Origin: Saururus chinensis
Taxonomy: Eukaryota; Streptophyta; Magnoliopsida; Piperales; Saururaceae
Reading direction: 5' to 3'
Assembly (NCBI GenBank): GCA_035235625.1
Contig: CP141150.1
Span: 14,698,330 to 14,762,329 of the forward strand
DNA: 64,000 nucleotides
In this document: in pieces, positions 2,064 through 8,000 of the stretch
How positions within the stretch are numbered: the first letter of the stretch is position 1
Layout of the letters: every line of letters begins with the position of its first letter
Notes under the pieces: model-generated
Databases searched by the model: none
What the model saw: only the letters and a program-made list of their open reading frames with translations
Told to the model about the DNA's origin: nothing
Position numbers and translations under genes: made by a program

Positions 2064-5000
2064 ATGGGCCTCCTCTCGAACAAGATTACAAGGGAGGAGC
2101 TTAAGCCTGGGGACCATATCTACTCCTGGCGCACCGCCTACCTCTACGCCCACCATGGTATGCTTTTCCAGTTTTCGTCCTTTTCTTGCCATTTTCCTGC
2201 TACCCTTTTGGAATTGCTTCGTGTTGCTTGAGCCTGGCGTGGGTATCTCATGACAAAGATGGTGGCTTGTTCCTTAAAAAGGATAAATGATGATTGTGGA
2301 ATTCGTGTTCTTCCCTTTTGTAAAGAGTGTCTATTTTGTTTGCATATTTTATTTGATTACTGCTTGTTTTGTACGTGTGTTTTCTTTTCTTTTTCTGCTT
2401 GATCTTGAGAGGGTTTTCAACATTGCCTAGCAACAGGGCTCTTCCCGCTGTTGCATTGTCAAAATTTGACTTGTTTGTGGTTGTTGCATTGGGATCCTGA
2501 TCAAAGATCTTTGCTTTCTTTGAAACTACTCAAGATTCTAATTTTGTAAGCATTTATTTGATCAAGTAGAGTGGGAAAAGTAGTTGTCAATGTACTTGGT
2601 CCCGGCACCATTTGATTGCTCTATTGTGTATAATGAAGTCTCATATTTGATTCAGGATTTTTTTTTTTGGTGCTTGGTAATCTGCGAAATATTTTCTTTT
2701 AACTCGCTATTGTAAGGATAGTGCCACTGGTATTTTGGTTTGCTTTTGGGGACCTTGCACATTGTATCCACTTATGCGACTGTGAAGGAGACATTTCGTA
2801 GTTTTGATGGCCTCTACCTGTACTGCATTCCAGTTTGATCGTTATTCTCTATCTTCTTTAGTTGTCTTCGTTTTCTTCTCTCTTTTTTCTATTGGTTTGG
2901 ATACAAATGATTTTTTTTTCTGTAAAGATGAACAAATATTAAGAAACCATTTGAACTATATAATTTCGACAGGACAACTAAAAGTTTTGGAGAAGACATG
3001 CGGCCAAGACAACTAGGTGTGCTTAGGGTTTGTTTGGACCAGTAGAAAGTGAGGGAAAGGAATCTTTTGAAAATCACCCAGTTTCCACTATTTAGTGCAA
3101 TGGGAAAGAGAGAATAGAGCAAAAATTGGGAGAAAGGGGGGGCGGGGTTGGCTTAAAAACTTTCCGCTCTTTAACCCATGGATTTTATGAGAAAATCTGC
3201 ATATCAAAGACTTGTATCTTCAACATTGCTAGTCTCGACCTTACCGCCACTACTCTTGTTGTCGCCGCCACCGCTATTATTGGTACTACCACCATTACTG
3301 CTGTTATCGCTACCACCACCATCACACTACTGCCACCTTTACTACTACCTCCGCCACCATTGTAGCTGCCACAACCACTACCAACACAACCCATTACAGC
3401 CCCTATCGTCACCACCTCTGAAGCTCCCACCATCATCAACTCTATGCCACTGTTATCGCTGCCTCCACCACCACCATCGGAAGCAGTTCGGAGGTGGTAT
3501 GGTGGCAGCAACATAGGGGTAGTTTTATTATTAAAAATACATATGAAACAATGTTATTTTTGTTGTTAGGGTGGATTCAAGTTTCAAATTTTCTATAACA
3601 CTATTGGTGCAACCAAAAAGTGAAATTTGTTTAGGATCCTCCTAGTGTCTCTTTCACGGGGATTTACTTTCTCTTTATCTTTCTCCTTGTTTTCACCAAT
3701 CTAAACATACCCTTATTATTTGCACAAGGAAACAAAAAATGGTGACAATAATATTAGGAGTAATTTCGACTATCTATCGGATAAGGATTCAAGTGATCTA
3801 GATCGTCTTTGCTACTGGATAGATATGATTGGTGTATGTGGTCAAATGCAAATGTCATTTCCCTAATTAGTTTATGTTGTTAGCCAAGTATGGAGGCATG
3901 ATTTTGGTGTGTGGGCTGTATATGACATGTTTTGTGGCTTTTCTATTGATTGAATCAACATTTACATACTTGTACGTGCTTTTTGTTTTGGTTTAAAGAT
4001 GGAAAGGATTCTATATTTCTTCGGGGCATTTAAAGCTAGAGTTTTAAGCCCTTATTTTCTTGCTCTAATTATAGATGAATTAACTGCACATATATAAGGT
4101 AGGATACCTTGGTGCTTGCTTTATGCGGATGAAGTAGTTTTAGTGGACAAGACTATAGTAAGGTTAAATGCTAAACTAGAATTGTGGAGAGAAGCTCTAG
4201 AATTAAAAAGTTTTAAAATAAGCAAGACGAAGACGAAAAATATGGAATTTAACTTTAAGGAAAGTAAAACTATGGGTACAACTTTAGTTGAAATAGATTG
4301 AGAAGAAGTGCCAAGATGAGCAATTCTGATATTTAGGCTTCATTATCCATAAAGAGGGAGACATCGATAGGGATGTTGTATATAGGATTAATGTGGGATG
4401 GGTAAAATGGAGAGCAACGTCAGTAGTATTGTGTGATAGGCGTGTCCCAAATGGGCTTAAAGGTAAGTTCTATTAAATAACTATTACACTGATGTAGATC
4501 GATATCTACATAAACAAAATTAAAGGAAAAGTAGAAGAAAAATAACTAAACAATGAAATAAAATAACTAAATTCTGATTTATGTAATCTGTTTATCAAAA
4601 TAGGCATAGCCTCTACATATTTATAGATAATTAAGTCTCCTAATCCAAATGATATTATAACTCTTAATTGAAATAGACTTCTAACTAGAATGGGCCTCTA
4701 ACATAAGCTTAAGCCCAATAGAATCCTAATTACTCTAAAATATAATCACTAACAAATAAATCCTAATTACTAAAGGTAGACCTGACCCCTTGGGCGGGTC
4801 ATAACATTCCACCTCGCTTCCGCTCCACCTCGTCCTTGAGGTGGTCTTCAACTTGGGGCGATTGAGGAACAAAGACTCACAAGGGACTACAGAGGGCCCA
4901 CCAAAGCTCTGCATAAATTTGGTAGTCTATCTTGATAATATGCACATTTCCATGAGGATCTCTTTCCAACAGTAACTGCACTTTAATTGCTTGAGGTTGA

Positions 5001-8000
5001 AGTTTTGTGTTCCAGAGTCCATAATTATAACCAAGTTCAGCACACGAGCATATTACATCGGCAATATATTCGGTAACACTTTTCAGGGTTTGCTTCTTGG
5101 CAGCTACCTCCTCACCAATAATAGAGATATTGGAATGTATATGTAAAACACATACAAATTTTAGGTGAGAAGCCGCACAACCCATGAGCCTAACAAAGGG
5201 ATAATATTTGCCTACGGACCGGGCGTCAGTCATGACACTCCCTAGCAGTTCCGCATATATCTTGCAGGCTGTATCAGATCCAAAACATGCAGGGACTTCT
5301 TTGATTTTCAGATCACCATCAATTGTCTTTGGACATCCAATAACACAAGTCTTCATATTTTCCATGCGGAAATGTTCGGCAAGGAGACAAGCATTTGTAT
5401 GCGAGTCATCTTCACAAATAACATGTCGAAACAAATCAAGTTTCACAGCATTCCCTTCGGCTTGCTTAAAATGTTCAAGAGTGTCTATTTTGTCCCTTCC
5501 ACTGCAAACCATGGCAAAGTCTCCCAAATTCATAGGAGGATAGATCAATTCGATCCTCAGCTCCAATAATGTGAAGGCATTCAGGGGTAGAGATGGGCTG
5601 GTGCATGACGAAACTGCATAGAAAAACAATGGGAAGTCCATTGTCCAGAAGATTAGAGAAAACCGGATTAAAACAGGGACAAGAGTCCTGTTCGAAATAG
5701 GTAAAGAGTAGAGTCCGGGAGAAGAAAACTGTTGTGCACGATCTGCCGGATGAGAGCAGGAAGGAACCGGGCCGGAGTAGGGGTCTTCGGAAGGTGGAAG
5801 TTTGGCTTGAACCCGCACAGTGCCGTGCGCAGGCACGAAACATGGCAGTCTGGGAGTATGTTCGTTCGTTGGTGAAAAAACAGGAACATGTAAAGCCGTA
5901 AGGAAACAAGATGCCAACTTTTTCACAGAATACCAGAGACATGATGCTGTCCCGTGGATTGCCAGAACTGTGAAGGAAGCAAGAGTCCGGTGGATGACGG
6001 AAGAAGGGAATACGGCGGTTGAGTCCGGAACGAGATTGAAGTGGAAGGCGGAGTAGATTCCAAGTCCTTGCTGGAGCAGGAGTTGTCCGGACGATGTGAA
6101 GGAAAGATTATTTGGGCGAAATCACCGGAGTAAATCTGGCAGAGACGGCGGAAGATCTTGGGTCGGCTTCGTCTGCGGACAGTGGCTGGTGGAAATCCCT
6201 GCGTCCAGTGGAGACAATGGAGTCGCAGAAGAAGCTGTGGAGGTGGTGACCACCGGGCGAGGCTGGCAGGGAGGGTGTGGGGGATGGCATGGCGGGGCGA
6301 ACAGGGAGAGATCGCAGGGAAAGATGAGGCTGTGGGCGGTGGATCTGGAGGTGGCTTGGCCTTGCCAGTCAAGCAAAGCTGATTCAGGGAGGAGGAAACA
6401 CAGCCATGGAGCACGAAGCAGGTAGGGGCTAGGTCGGCGAAATGATTCATGGCCAGAGCAACAAGGCCGGCCGGGGAAGGAGACTGCAGAGCTGAAATCA
6501 CAATCTTAGCACTGATCGCGGACTGGGTGATATGTGCGACTGTGGATAAAGCCATGGAAGAGAAGAGCCGAGCGGAAGGTGGGTCCTACCACATGGACGG
6601 ATGGCGACTAAACGTGGAAGGTATCCCGGTGCTGGGCACAAGCAGCGGGCGGCAACGAGACGGCAGACGGAGCCAGTGGAGTCCGCATTAAGGCGGTCGG
6701 GCTGAAGGGTGCCAGATTTAGAATGGGAAGCTGTTGATTCGGCAATTGCACTTGGAGCGATTGAACGGCGTGGGTGAGTGCAGTAATAGCAATTTTCACA
6801 TCGATAAGTTCCGAAATAGCCGTTTTTACATTGGTAAGATCCAAAAGCACTGTGTTGATTTGCGTTTCTAACTGCTGTGTGCGAACGTGAAGGCTAGCAA
6901 AGGAAGAATCATAGGCACTCATGGCGGATGAGGGTGGGAGGGAGGGCAACAACGGTCGAAACCGCTCCGATACCAATGATGTAGATCGATATCTACATAA
7001 ACAAAATTAAAGGAAAAGTAGAAGAAAAATAACTGAACAATGAAATAAAATAACTAAATTTTGATTTATGTAATTTGTATATCAAAAGAGGCATAGCCTC
7101 TACATATTTATAGATAATTAAGTCTCCTAATCCTAATGATATTATAACTCTTAATTGAAATAGACTTCTAACTAGAATGGGCCTCTAACATAAGCCTAAG
7201 CTCAATAGAATCCTAATTACTCTAAAATATAATCACTAACAAATAAATCTTAATTACTAAAGGTAGACCTGACCCCTTGGGTGGGTCATAACATACACCT
7301 GCAATACTCGAGCATAATGCAATACTCTGTGGAGCATAATGTTGGGCAACAAATAAGTCATTTAGATAAATTGAATATAGTTAAAATGTAGATGCTAAGG
7401 TAGATGTGTAGAATAACTAGAAAAAATATGATTAAAAATAAGTATATACATGCAAACTTAGGAGTAACACCTTTAAGGAAGAACTTCAGGGAGTGTAAGT
7501 TACATTAGCTTAGGCATGTACAAAGAAGACTATTAAATGCTTCGATAAGAAGGTTATAAGGGTTTTATATAAATGATGCCAAAAAAGGGAGAGAGACACC
7601 TAAGAGAAGTTAGATAGAATTAATAAAGAATGATATGACTATGCTATTTTTTACGAAAGAATTGGCACAAAATATGCTAGAATTGAGGCATAAGATCCAT
7701 GTCACTACCCTAAATTGTTAGAAAAATGCGCTATTTGATCATGATTATGATTTAAATTAAGCTAGAGCATTTCTCCTCATCTTCTTGTTGCATACTACAA
7801 TGTTGGGTTGTTAATGCACAATAACAGGGTTCTCATCTCCTCAAAGCATGATTTGTGTTTAGTTGCGAAGCCATTTGAAGCTACATGATTTTGTTGGTGA
7901 AGAAGAAATTTGTGCGCCAGATTTCTATGTTTATTGCTTGAAGGAAAATTTAGAGCGTAGATATTTTTTTGTGGAAAAGTGTATGCAGTTGGATGACTGT

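What the first reader, a model, noticed from the sequence alone, without database searches (positions are those of the whole stretch)
4490..7293. LTR retroelement that carries a spliced piece of the PFP beta-subunit gene
Seen: paired 317-bp LTRs, a perfect TACAC target duplication, a near-perfect tRNA-Met primer site, a purine tract, and in between a long intron-free match to the catalytic beta subunit of pyrophosphate-dependent phosphofructokinase. No polymerase or integrase was recognised. Known: a few plant retroelements, such as maize Bs1, have picked up host gene pieces. Inferred: capture went through RNA, because the source gene normally has many introns, and the element moved after capture. 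A PFP-bearing element family is not one I know of.
Basis: partly seen in the sequence, partly recalled or inferred. Interest (0 to 1): 0.8.

Follow-up and report, generated by a model that had tools for sequence, protein, structure and literature searches.

The report
Retrotransposon carrying spliced host-gene pieces
A small plant LTR retrotransposon that probably cannot move without help carries a decayed, intron-free piece of a sugar-metabolism gene, and a few relatives elsewhere in the genome carry the same piece, so it was picked up through RNA and then copied around.

Summary
Window 4490-7293 is a complete 2,804-bp LTR element on the minus strand: two 317-bp LTRs (10 mismatches), TACAC target duplication, primer site, purine tract, no recognisable pol. 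It sits in a LINE-like repeat; 35 of 42 genome matches to the joined flanks run across the empty site. The interior carries, in sense, about 585 nt of PFP beta-subunit mRNA. The only intron-bearing source gene found (C2) has introns where the element has none. Copies at C9:16.03 and C6:24.58 Mb carry 12 joined exon blocks of that gene with the same fusion points, in unrelated flanks; three shorter copies lie in a duplicated stretch at C9:11 Mb. dN/dS among the full copies is 0.87-1.44, so the piece looks like a passenger. A related C8 fragment carries seven joined exons of that gene, and its NB-ARC/WD40 joint coincides with splice-site sequences. A gag-bearing Ty3-type element shares the leader and is the likeliest helper type; its pol was not seen. 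New member of a known kind (maize Bs1, soybean gene-bearing TRIMs).

The parts
4485..4489 (.). target-site duplication TACAC, left copy
   Evidence: read; the joined-flank search shows the same 5-base overlap (query 125-129)
4490..4806 (-). 3' LTR (317 bp, TGTTATGACCCG...CTACATCA)
4807..4823 (-). polypurine tract GCGGAAGCGAGGTGGAA next to the 3' LTR
   Evidence: the tract+LTR junction pattern has 180 genome matches at up to 3 mismatches, 0 for the reversed control
4941..5525 (-). captured PFP beta-subunit mRNA piece: host exons e1-e5 and parts of e6 and e7 joined without introns, two internal deletions
   Evidence: 88.2% (516 of 585 columns) identical to the spliced host gene
5526..5565 (-). 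possible further upstream PFP exon (e0) joined to e1; weak match
   Evidence: 29-nt match at E 0.36-0.39 and alignment
4877..6121 (-). 414-codon open frame (stop to stop) that runs through the PFP piece; no evidence of selection
5560..6699 (-). interior segments shared with other family members (C9:11 Mb, C6:24.58, C1:43.27, C11:26.35 and others), no Pfam match in the ORFs scanned
6608..6922 (-). leader ORF resembling the N-terminal part of the gag ORF of a Ty3-type element at C8:17.9 Mb (45 of 70 residues)
6964..6975 (-). primer-binding site TGGTATCGGAGC
   Evidence: LTR+PBS junction pattern has 113 genome matches at up to 3 mismatches, 0 for the reversed control
6977..7293 (-). 5' LTR (317 bp)
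7294..7298 (.). target-site duplication TACAC, right copy
4361..4489 (+). left part of the LINE-like repeat into which the element inserted
   Evidence: upstream ORF 4098-4301 has a sub-threshold RVT_1 match (E 0.002, 18.3 bits against cut-off 29.6)
7299..7480 (+). right part of the same LINE-like repeat

Best explanation
A non-autonomous, Ty3-related LTR retrotransposon family in this plant genome acquired a piece of the spliced PFP beta-subunit mRNA and then moved with it. Shown: complete element anatomy, intron-free exon joints, insertion into a repeat whose relatives lack the insert, and the same PFP piece in elements at other sites. Inferred: the join was made during reverse transcription inside a particle supplied by a gag-pol-bearing relative, when the polymerase switched between the element RNA and a co-packaged PFP mRNA. 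One PFP lineage later recombined with a relative that already carried an NB-ARC-gene piece and a WD40-type gene piece (C6/C9:16.03 form); the window copy is the other lineage. The PFP piece is an unselected passenger.
For: Element ends and LTRs. Empty site: 35 of 42 matches to the joined flanks run across the joint, while the window splits 1-129/125-312 with the TSD as overlap. Exons e1-e7 of the C2 gene are bounded by AG/GT, and the element joins e1|e2, e2|e3, e3|e4, e4|e5 and e5|e6 without introns. C9:16.03 and C6 match 12 gene blocks from 14226397 to 14239023 in order, with the same 5' and 3' fusion points. No similarity at E 1e-5 among the flank slices compared for window, C9:16.03 and C6; C9:16.03 has a TSD-like pair TAAGA/TAAGC. 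12 of 506 compared columns are shared by the three full copies against the gene, 6 of them nonsynonymous, which favours one capture. dN/dS between full copies 0.87-1.44. Only one intron-bearing PFP gene of this type was found (37 of 37 candidates scored). Leader ORF is like the gag N-terminal part of a Retrotrans_gag element. The WD40|PFP joint lies in a shared GAAT.
Against: The window copy and the C6/C9:16.03 copies have different sequence upstream of PFP, and the window may keep more of the upstream exon, so two captures are not excluded. C6 has no clear TSD and its LTRs differ at 37 of 291 sites; its two flanks share 223 nt at 80%, so its surroundings are rearranged or repetitive. The window copy has 41 private changes although its LTRs are young, and no close sister of it was found. 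That the polymerase switched templates is inferred, not shown.
Confidence: 0.9

Rival explanations
1. Two independent captures: PFP mRNA was taken up once by the window lineage and once by the lineage of C6 and C9:16.03.
For: Different neighbours upstream of the PFP piece, and different 5' limits (the window seems to include part of exon e0, the others start about 7 nt before e1). Some deletions are lineage-specific.
Against: 12 columns shared by the three full copies against the gene, 6 nonsynonymous in an enzyme that should be constrained. The window and C6 share other interior segments in the same order.
Confidence: 0.15
2. A LINE-made processed PFP pseudogene was already in the genome, and the element picked it up at DNA level or by read-through.
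For: LINE-like repeats are common here, and the exon-joined piece alone does not say which polymerase made it.
Against: No PFP retrocopy outside the elements was found: of 16 protein matches from 37 of 37 scored candidates, six lie in element copies and four in the intron-bearing C2 gene; the other six are the C8 fragment's segment upstream of the WD40 piece, three C7 matches to that same segment, and two 33-34% matches on C4 that were not looked into. In C6 and C9:16.03 the piece stops short of the end of the gene and in the window well before it.
Confidence: 0.1
3. The PFP-bearing open frame is functional: a chimeric protein, or a source of small RNA against the host PFP gene.
For: A 414-codon frame is open through the PFP piece in the window. 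Sense orientation and 88% identity to the gene would allow small-RNA cross-talk.
Against: dN/dS near 1 between full copies; internal deletions and loss of a codon in the stretch that reads GGDD in the gene. Gene-against-copy dN/dS is 0.57-0.80, which includes the constrained gene branch.
Confidence: 0.05
4. The LTR pair is a local duplication and the PFP piece an ordinary retrocopy lying between the halves.
For: None found.
Against: TSD, primer site, purine tract, empty site in related repeats, and the same LTRs genome-wide.
Confidence: 0.01

Closest known systems
Bs1 of maize
   Same: LTR element that carries exon-only pieces of several host genes (review PMC13317346, passages seen: ATPase, xylan endohydrolase, beta-1,3-glucanase; exon-only stated in PMC4717578, passage).
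   Different: Other host genes. Bs1 is reported to be transcribed and translated as a chimeric gene; here no sign of selection was found and expression is untested.
Gene-bearing TRIMs of soybean, e.g. GmaRetroS15 (PMC4717578)
   Same: Short LTR elements with 5-bp TSDs, exon-only pieces from up to three genes, amplified after acquisition (section 13 read).
   Different: The window element is larger (2.8 kb against 1,172-1,449 bp for the gene-bearing TRIMs) and its leader resembles a Ty3-type gag; the genes differ.
Maize LTR retrotransposons with gene fragments (PMC2774510)
   Same: 425 intact elements with host gene fragments, at least 189 captures (passages seen).
   Different: That survey found no single element with fragments of more than one nuclear gene; the C6 and C9:16.03 copies here carry pieces of three.
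Ty3-type gag-bearing element at C8:17.9 Mb, same genome
   Same: Primer-site region, and 45 of 70 residues in the N-terminal part of the gag ORF.
   Different: Long gag ORF with Retrotrans_gag (1.9e-13); only the last bases of an LTR matched in the 3.2 kb held; no PFP match there.

Membership tests
LTR retrotransposon (complete insertion) | paired LTRs with TG...CA ends, TSD, primer site, purine tract | tested here: met
LTR retrotransposon, autonomous | gag-pol coding capacity | tested here: not met
   interior 2,170 bp; Pfam scans of nine of its ORFs or ORF parts gave only PFK above cut-off; leader ORF resembles only the N-terminal part of a gag
Bs1-type gene-transducing LTR element | exon-only host gene piece inside the LTRs | tested here: met
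Bs1-type gene-transducing LTR element | pieces of several host genes | tested here: met
   for C6 and C9:16.03 (NB-ARC, WD40-type, PFP); in the window copy only PFP was recognised
Bs1-type gene-transducing LTR element | mobile after capture | tested here: met
   PFP piece in elements at unrelated sites
Bs1 itself | sequence homology to maize Bs1 | not tested
   no plant element library at hand
TRIM | very small size, no coding region | tested here: not met
   2.8 kb with a gag-like leader ORF; the size limit of TRIMs is recalled, 1,172-1,449 bp for gene-bearing TRIMs
Ty3/gypsy-derived non-autonomous element | shared leader/gag with a Ty3-type element | tested here: met
   Ty3_capsid itself was below its cut-off (26.4 against 29.1 bits)
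Ty3/gypsy-derived non-autonomous element | matching LTRs with a pol-bearing partner | tested here: inconclusive
Of 11 primer-site/purine-tract pairs found in the capped lists, 10 are 0.7-2.2 kb and one, C9:28.887-28.894 Mb, is 6.8 kb; two ORFs from its last 1.5 kb gave no Pfam match and the rest was not read
LINE-made processed pseudogene | poly(A) tail, 3' end of the mRNA, own TSD | tested here: not met
   piece is bounded by element sequence on both sides and lacks the end of the gene

The most novel reading that the evidence does not exclude
The family is a serial gene-collecting LTR lineage whose copies preserve the order of captures and more than one way of joining. One joint (NB-ARC piece to WD40-type gene) was made by RNA splicing from a donor-like site in the element's cargo (AAAAG|GTATGC in the NB-ARC gene) into a host exon's acceptor (TTTGTAG|TCAGG), that is, exon trapping by a read-through transcript. 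The next joint (WD40 to PFP) was made by template switching at GAAT between two cargo-carrying RNAs.
Probability: 0.35. Interest if true: 0.6.

Novelty: new member of a known kind. Interest (0 to 1): 0.45.

Why it matters
It is a clear, multi-copy case of plant mRNA capture by an LTR element in which source genes, empty-site relatives, intermediate forms and derivatives sit in one genome. The order of captures and the type of each joint can be read directly, which makes the question of how LTR elements pick up host genes (read-through with splicing, or template switching) testable in one family. For gene annotation, it warns that several PFP-like, NB-ARC-like and WD40-like frames in this genome are transposon cargo.

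Tried and rejected
Local-duplication reading: rejected by TSD, genome-wide LTR/PBS/PPT junctions and empty site. Retained-intron reading: rejected. The C9:11.02/11.08/11.15 copies were first counted as separate insertions. 11.08 and 11.15 were then merged as one duplicated insertion (left flanks 94.7% over 1,226, right flanks 97.9% over 477 positions); 11.02 is probably another duplicate, but only its right flank aligns (92.2% over 434 with 11.08, 87.1% over 70 with 11.15) and its left slice matched neither. A search for further captured genes in other relatives scanned 10 ORFs, from 8 of the 9 loci (L074 left out) and from L049; none passed its Pfam cut-off. One sub-threshold ASTER match at C11:30.15 Mb lies next to a duplicated LTR, not clearly inside an element. 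The first idea that window interior 5560-6699 is further host-gene cargo was dropped: those segments recur in other members and match no Pfam family in the ORFs scanned. An earlier impression that every primer-site/purine-tract pair is short was wrong: a scripted pairing found one of 6.8 kb. The host plant was not identified. Paper searches: 'LTR retrotransposon'+phosphofructokinase+'gene capture' gave 0 papers; 'pyrophosphate-dependent phosphofructokinase'+retrotransposon gave 4 (listing and abstract starts only, no title or abstract holds either term); three wider searches on capture and one on read-through were seen as listings, from which four papers were opened; no 'phosphofructokinase' in PMC13317346, PMC4717578 or PMC7264820.
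Full report
Anatomy. Window 4490-7293 holds two 317-bp direct repeats 2,487 bp apart, identical except for 10 mismatches (7 transitions, no gaps). K2P is 0.032, about 1.2 million years at 1.3e-8 per site and year (rate recalled). Both start TGTTATGACCC and end CTACATCA when read on the minus strand. On that strand the 5' LTR is followed at once by TTGGTATCGGAGC and the 3' LTR is preceded by GCGGAAGCGAGGTGGAA; TACAC stands on both outer sides. 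The genome gave 45 LTR matches (40 of 476 candidates scored, so a lower bound), 113 LTR+primer-site junctions and 180 purine-tract+LTR junctions at up to 3 mismatches, with 0 and 0 for the reversed controls.

Insertion. The flanks are halves of a repeat that I call LINE-like: an ORF just upstream (4098-4301) has an RVT_1 match below the Pfam cut-off (E 0.002), and the rest of that name is recalled. A query of the two flanks joined without the element gave 42 matches, 35 of which run across the joint. The other 7 are the two window halves and five one-sided matches, two of which are neighbouring pieces of one C11 copy. The window's own halves overlap by exactly the five TSD bases. 40 of 548 candidates were scored there.

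PFP piece. The minus-strand frame in 5560-4877 matches a solved pyrophosphate-dependent phosphofructokinase (1kzh, E 6.9e-42). The host genome has one intron-bearing gene for it, on C2: exons e1-e7 (14226403-14233909) have AG before and GT after, and the joined exons read as one open PFP frame. The window element joins e1 to e5 and parts of e6 and e7 with no intron, 88.2% identical over 585 columns. One deletion spans the e6/e7 boundary, so that joint is not informative in the window; the five joints e1|e2 to e5|e6 are. Part of the upstream exon e0 and a few bases of the exon after e7 may also be present, but those matches are weak.

Other copies. A protein search scored 37 of 37 candidates and gave 16 matches. 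Six are in elements (window, C9:16.03, C6:24.58, and three at C9:11.02/11.08/11.15), four are exons of the C2 gene, two on C4 are distant (33-34%, not looked into), and four belong to the segment upstream of PFP. C9:16.03 and C6:24.58 each match 12 gene blocks in order from 14226397 to 14239023, with the same 5' joint (GGATCATTGAATCAG|GGTGGC) and the same 3' joint after CAGTTTCATGG, and a shared internal deletion after GCAGTTAC. The flank slices compared (about 0.6-1.2 kb) share nothing between window, C9:16.03 and C6 at E 1e-5. C9:16.03 has LTRs differing at 37 of 320 sites and a TSD-like pair TAAGA/TAAGC; C6 has 37 of 291 differences, no clear TSD, and flanks that share 223 nt with each other at 80%. 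The C9:11 Mb copies carry about 160 nt; 11.08 and 11.15 are duplicates of one insertion (flanks 95-98%), and 11.02 probably is too, on its right flank only (87-92%).

One capture or two. In the aligned PFP region of 506 ungapped columns, 12 are shared by all three full copies against the gene, 10 by C6 and C9:16.03 only, 41 are private to the window, 12 and 13 private to C9:16.03 and C6, 2 join the window and C6, 7 are complex and 409 are invariant. Six of the 12 are nonsynonymous. On its own this is only the branch between gene and copies; because the gene should be constrained, I read the nonsynonymous ones as changes in a shared element ancestor. The differing upstream neighbours speak the other way. 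dN/dS is 0.87, 0.96 and 1.44 between the full copies and 0.57-0.80 between gene and full copies: no sign of selection on the cargo.

More cargo. Upstream of PFP, C6 and C9:16.03 carry 116 and 70 nt that match a C7 gene with NB-ARC (5.5e-59) and LRR domains (86-89%), then about 20 nt that a copy at C8:21.427 Mb continues into a WD40-type gene piece (called tomosyn-like from memory; Pfam gives only beta-propeller matches below cut-off). The source of that piece is an intron-bearing gene at C2:3957344-3961797, seven blocks of which are joined in the C8 copy. The C8 copy has about 70 nt of an LTR end before its leader, and no match to the element in the 3.3 kb after it, so it is a fragment. A C7:5.386 Mb locus with several LTR matches carries 190 nt of the same WD40 piece.

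Joints. The NB-ARC piece ends at AAAAG, followed in the gene by GTATGC; the WD40 piece begins at the exon start after TTTGTAG, with one mismatch in its first five bases. That is what splicing would leave. The WD40 to PFP joint lies in GAAT, common to both partners, away from a splice site on the WD40 side, which is what template switching would leave. Each is a single observed joint, so chance is not excluded.

Helper. The leader ORF of the window element matches the N-terminal part of a 618-codon gag ORF (open at the end of the locus) at C8:17.9 Mb (45 of 70 residues), which has Retrotrans_gag (1.9e-13) and a Ty3_capsid match below cut-off. Its pol was not fetched. Pairing the 100 listed primer-site junctions with the 100 listed purine-tract junctions and 18 edges gave 11 pairs: 10 of 0.7-2.2 kb, the window among them, and one of 6.8 kb at C9:28.887-28.894 Mb. 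That one could be a longer relative; two ORFs from its last 1.5 kb gave no Pfam match.

Known work. Host gene capture by plant LTR elements is established: Bs1 (review PMC13317346, passages), TRIMs of soybean and Medicago with exon-only pieces, one with pieces of three genes (PMC4717578, section 13), 425 gene-bearing maize elements (PMC2774510, passages). I found no report of a PFP-bearing element in the searches or the term searches. The finding is therefore a real, well-documented new example with an informative capture history, not a new kind of element.

Noticed in passing
G000 C6:24582012-24583218 and C9:16027456-16028157: PFP-bearing copies also carry an NB-ARC/LRR gene piece and about 20 nt of a WD40-type gene directly upstream of PFP, so three host genes in one element.
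   Followed up: yes
L080 (C8:21426900-21428600): Element fragment with an NB-ARC piece joined to seven intron-free exons of a WD40-type (tomosyn-like, name recalled) gene; a high-copy repeat occupies query 883-1102.
   Followed up: partly
L079 around 1324 and L097 around 95: The NB-ARC|WD40 joint coincides with a donor-like AAAAG|GTATGC and an exon start after TTTGTAG, suggesting capture by splicing of a read-through transcript.
   Followed up: partly
G000 C9:28887018-28893804 (L024 holds the last part): Primer-site and purine-tract junctions of this family 6.8 kb apart on one strand; possibly a longer, helper-like member, most of it unread.
   Followed up: partly
L049 (C11:30150900-30157700): Two LTRs of this family 5.3 kb apart, each followed by similar sequence (88% over 1,269 positions) that in the first unit has a sub-threshold ASTER match (PF03669, 3.7e-4).
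   Followed up: partly
L052, L053, L054: Closely spaced LTR copies of this family: 4 bases apart in L052 (a third copy 2 kb away), 41 bases apart in L053, and two direct copies with a partial inverted one between them in L054.
   Followed up: no
L070-L073: A related subfamily (LTR end often ...CTACAACA, tract AAGAGTGGTGGAA) with 1.4-2.2 kb interiors that share long stretches with each other but, at E 1e-5, only short end segments with the window.
   Followed up: partly
window 4361-4489 and 7299-7480: LINE-like repeat split by the element; the repeat has many copies in this genome (RVT_1 sub-threshold).
   Followed up: yes
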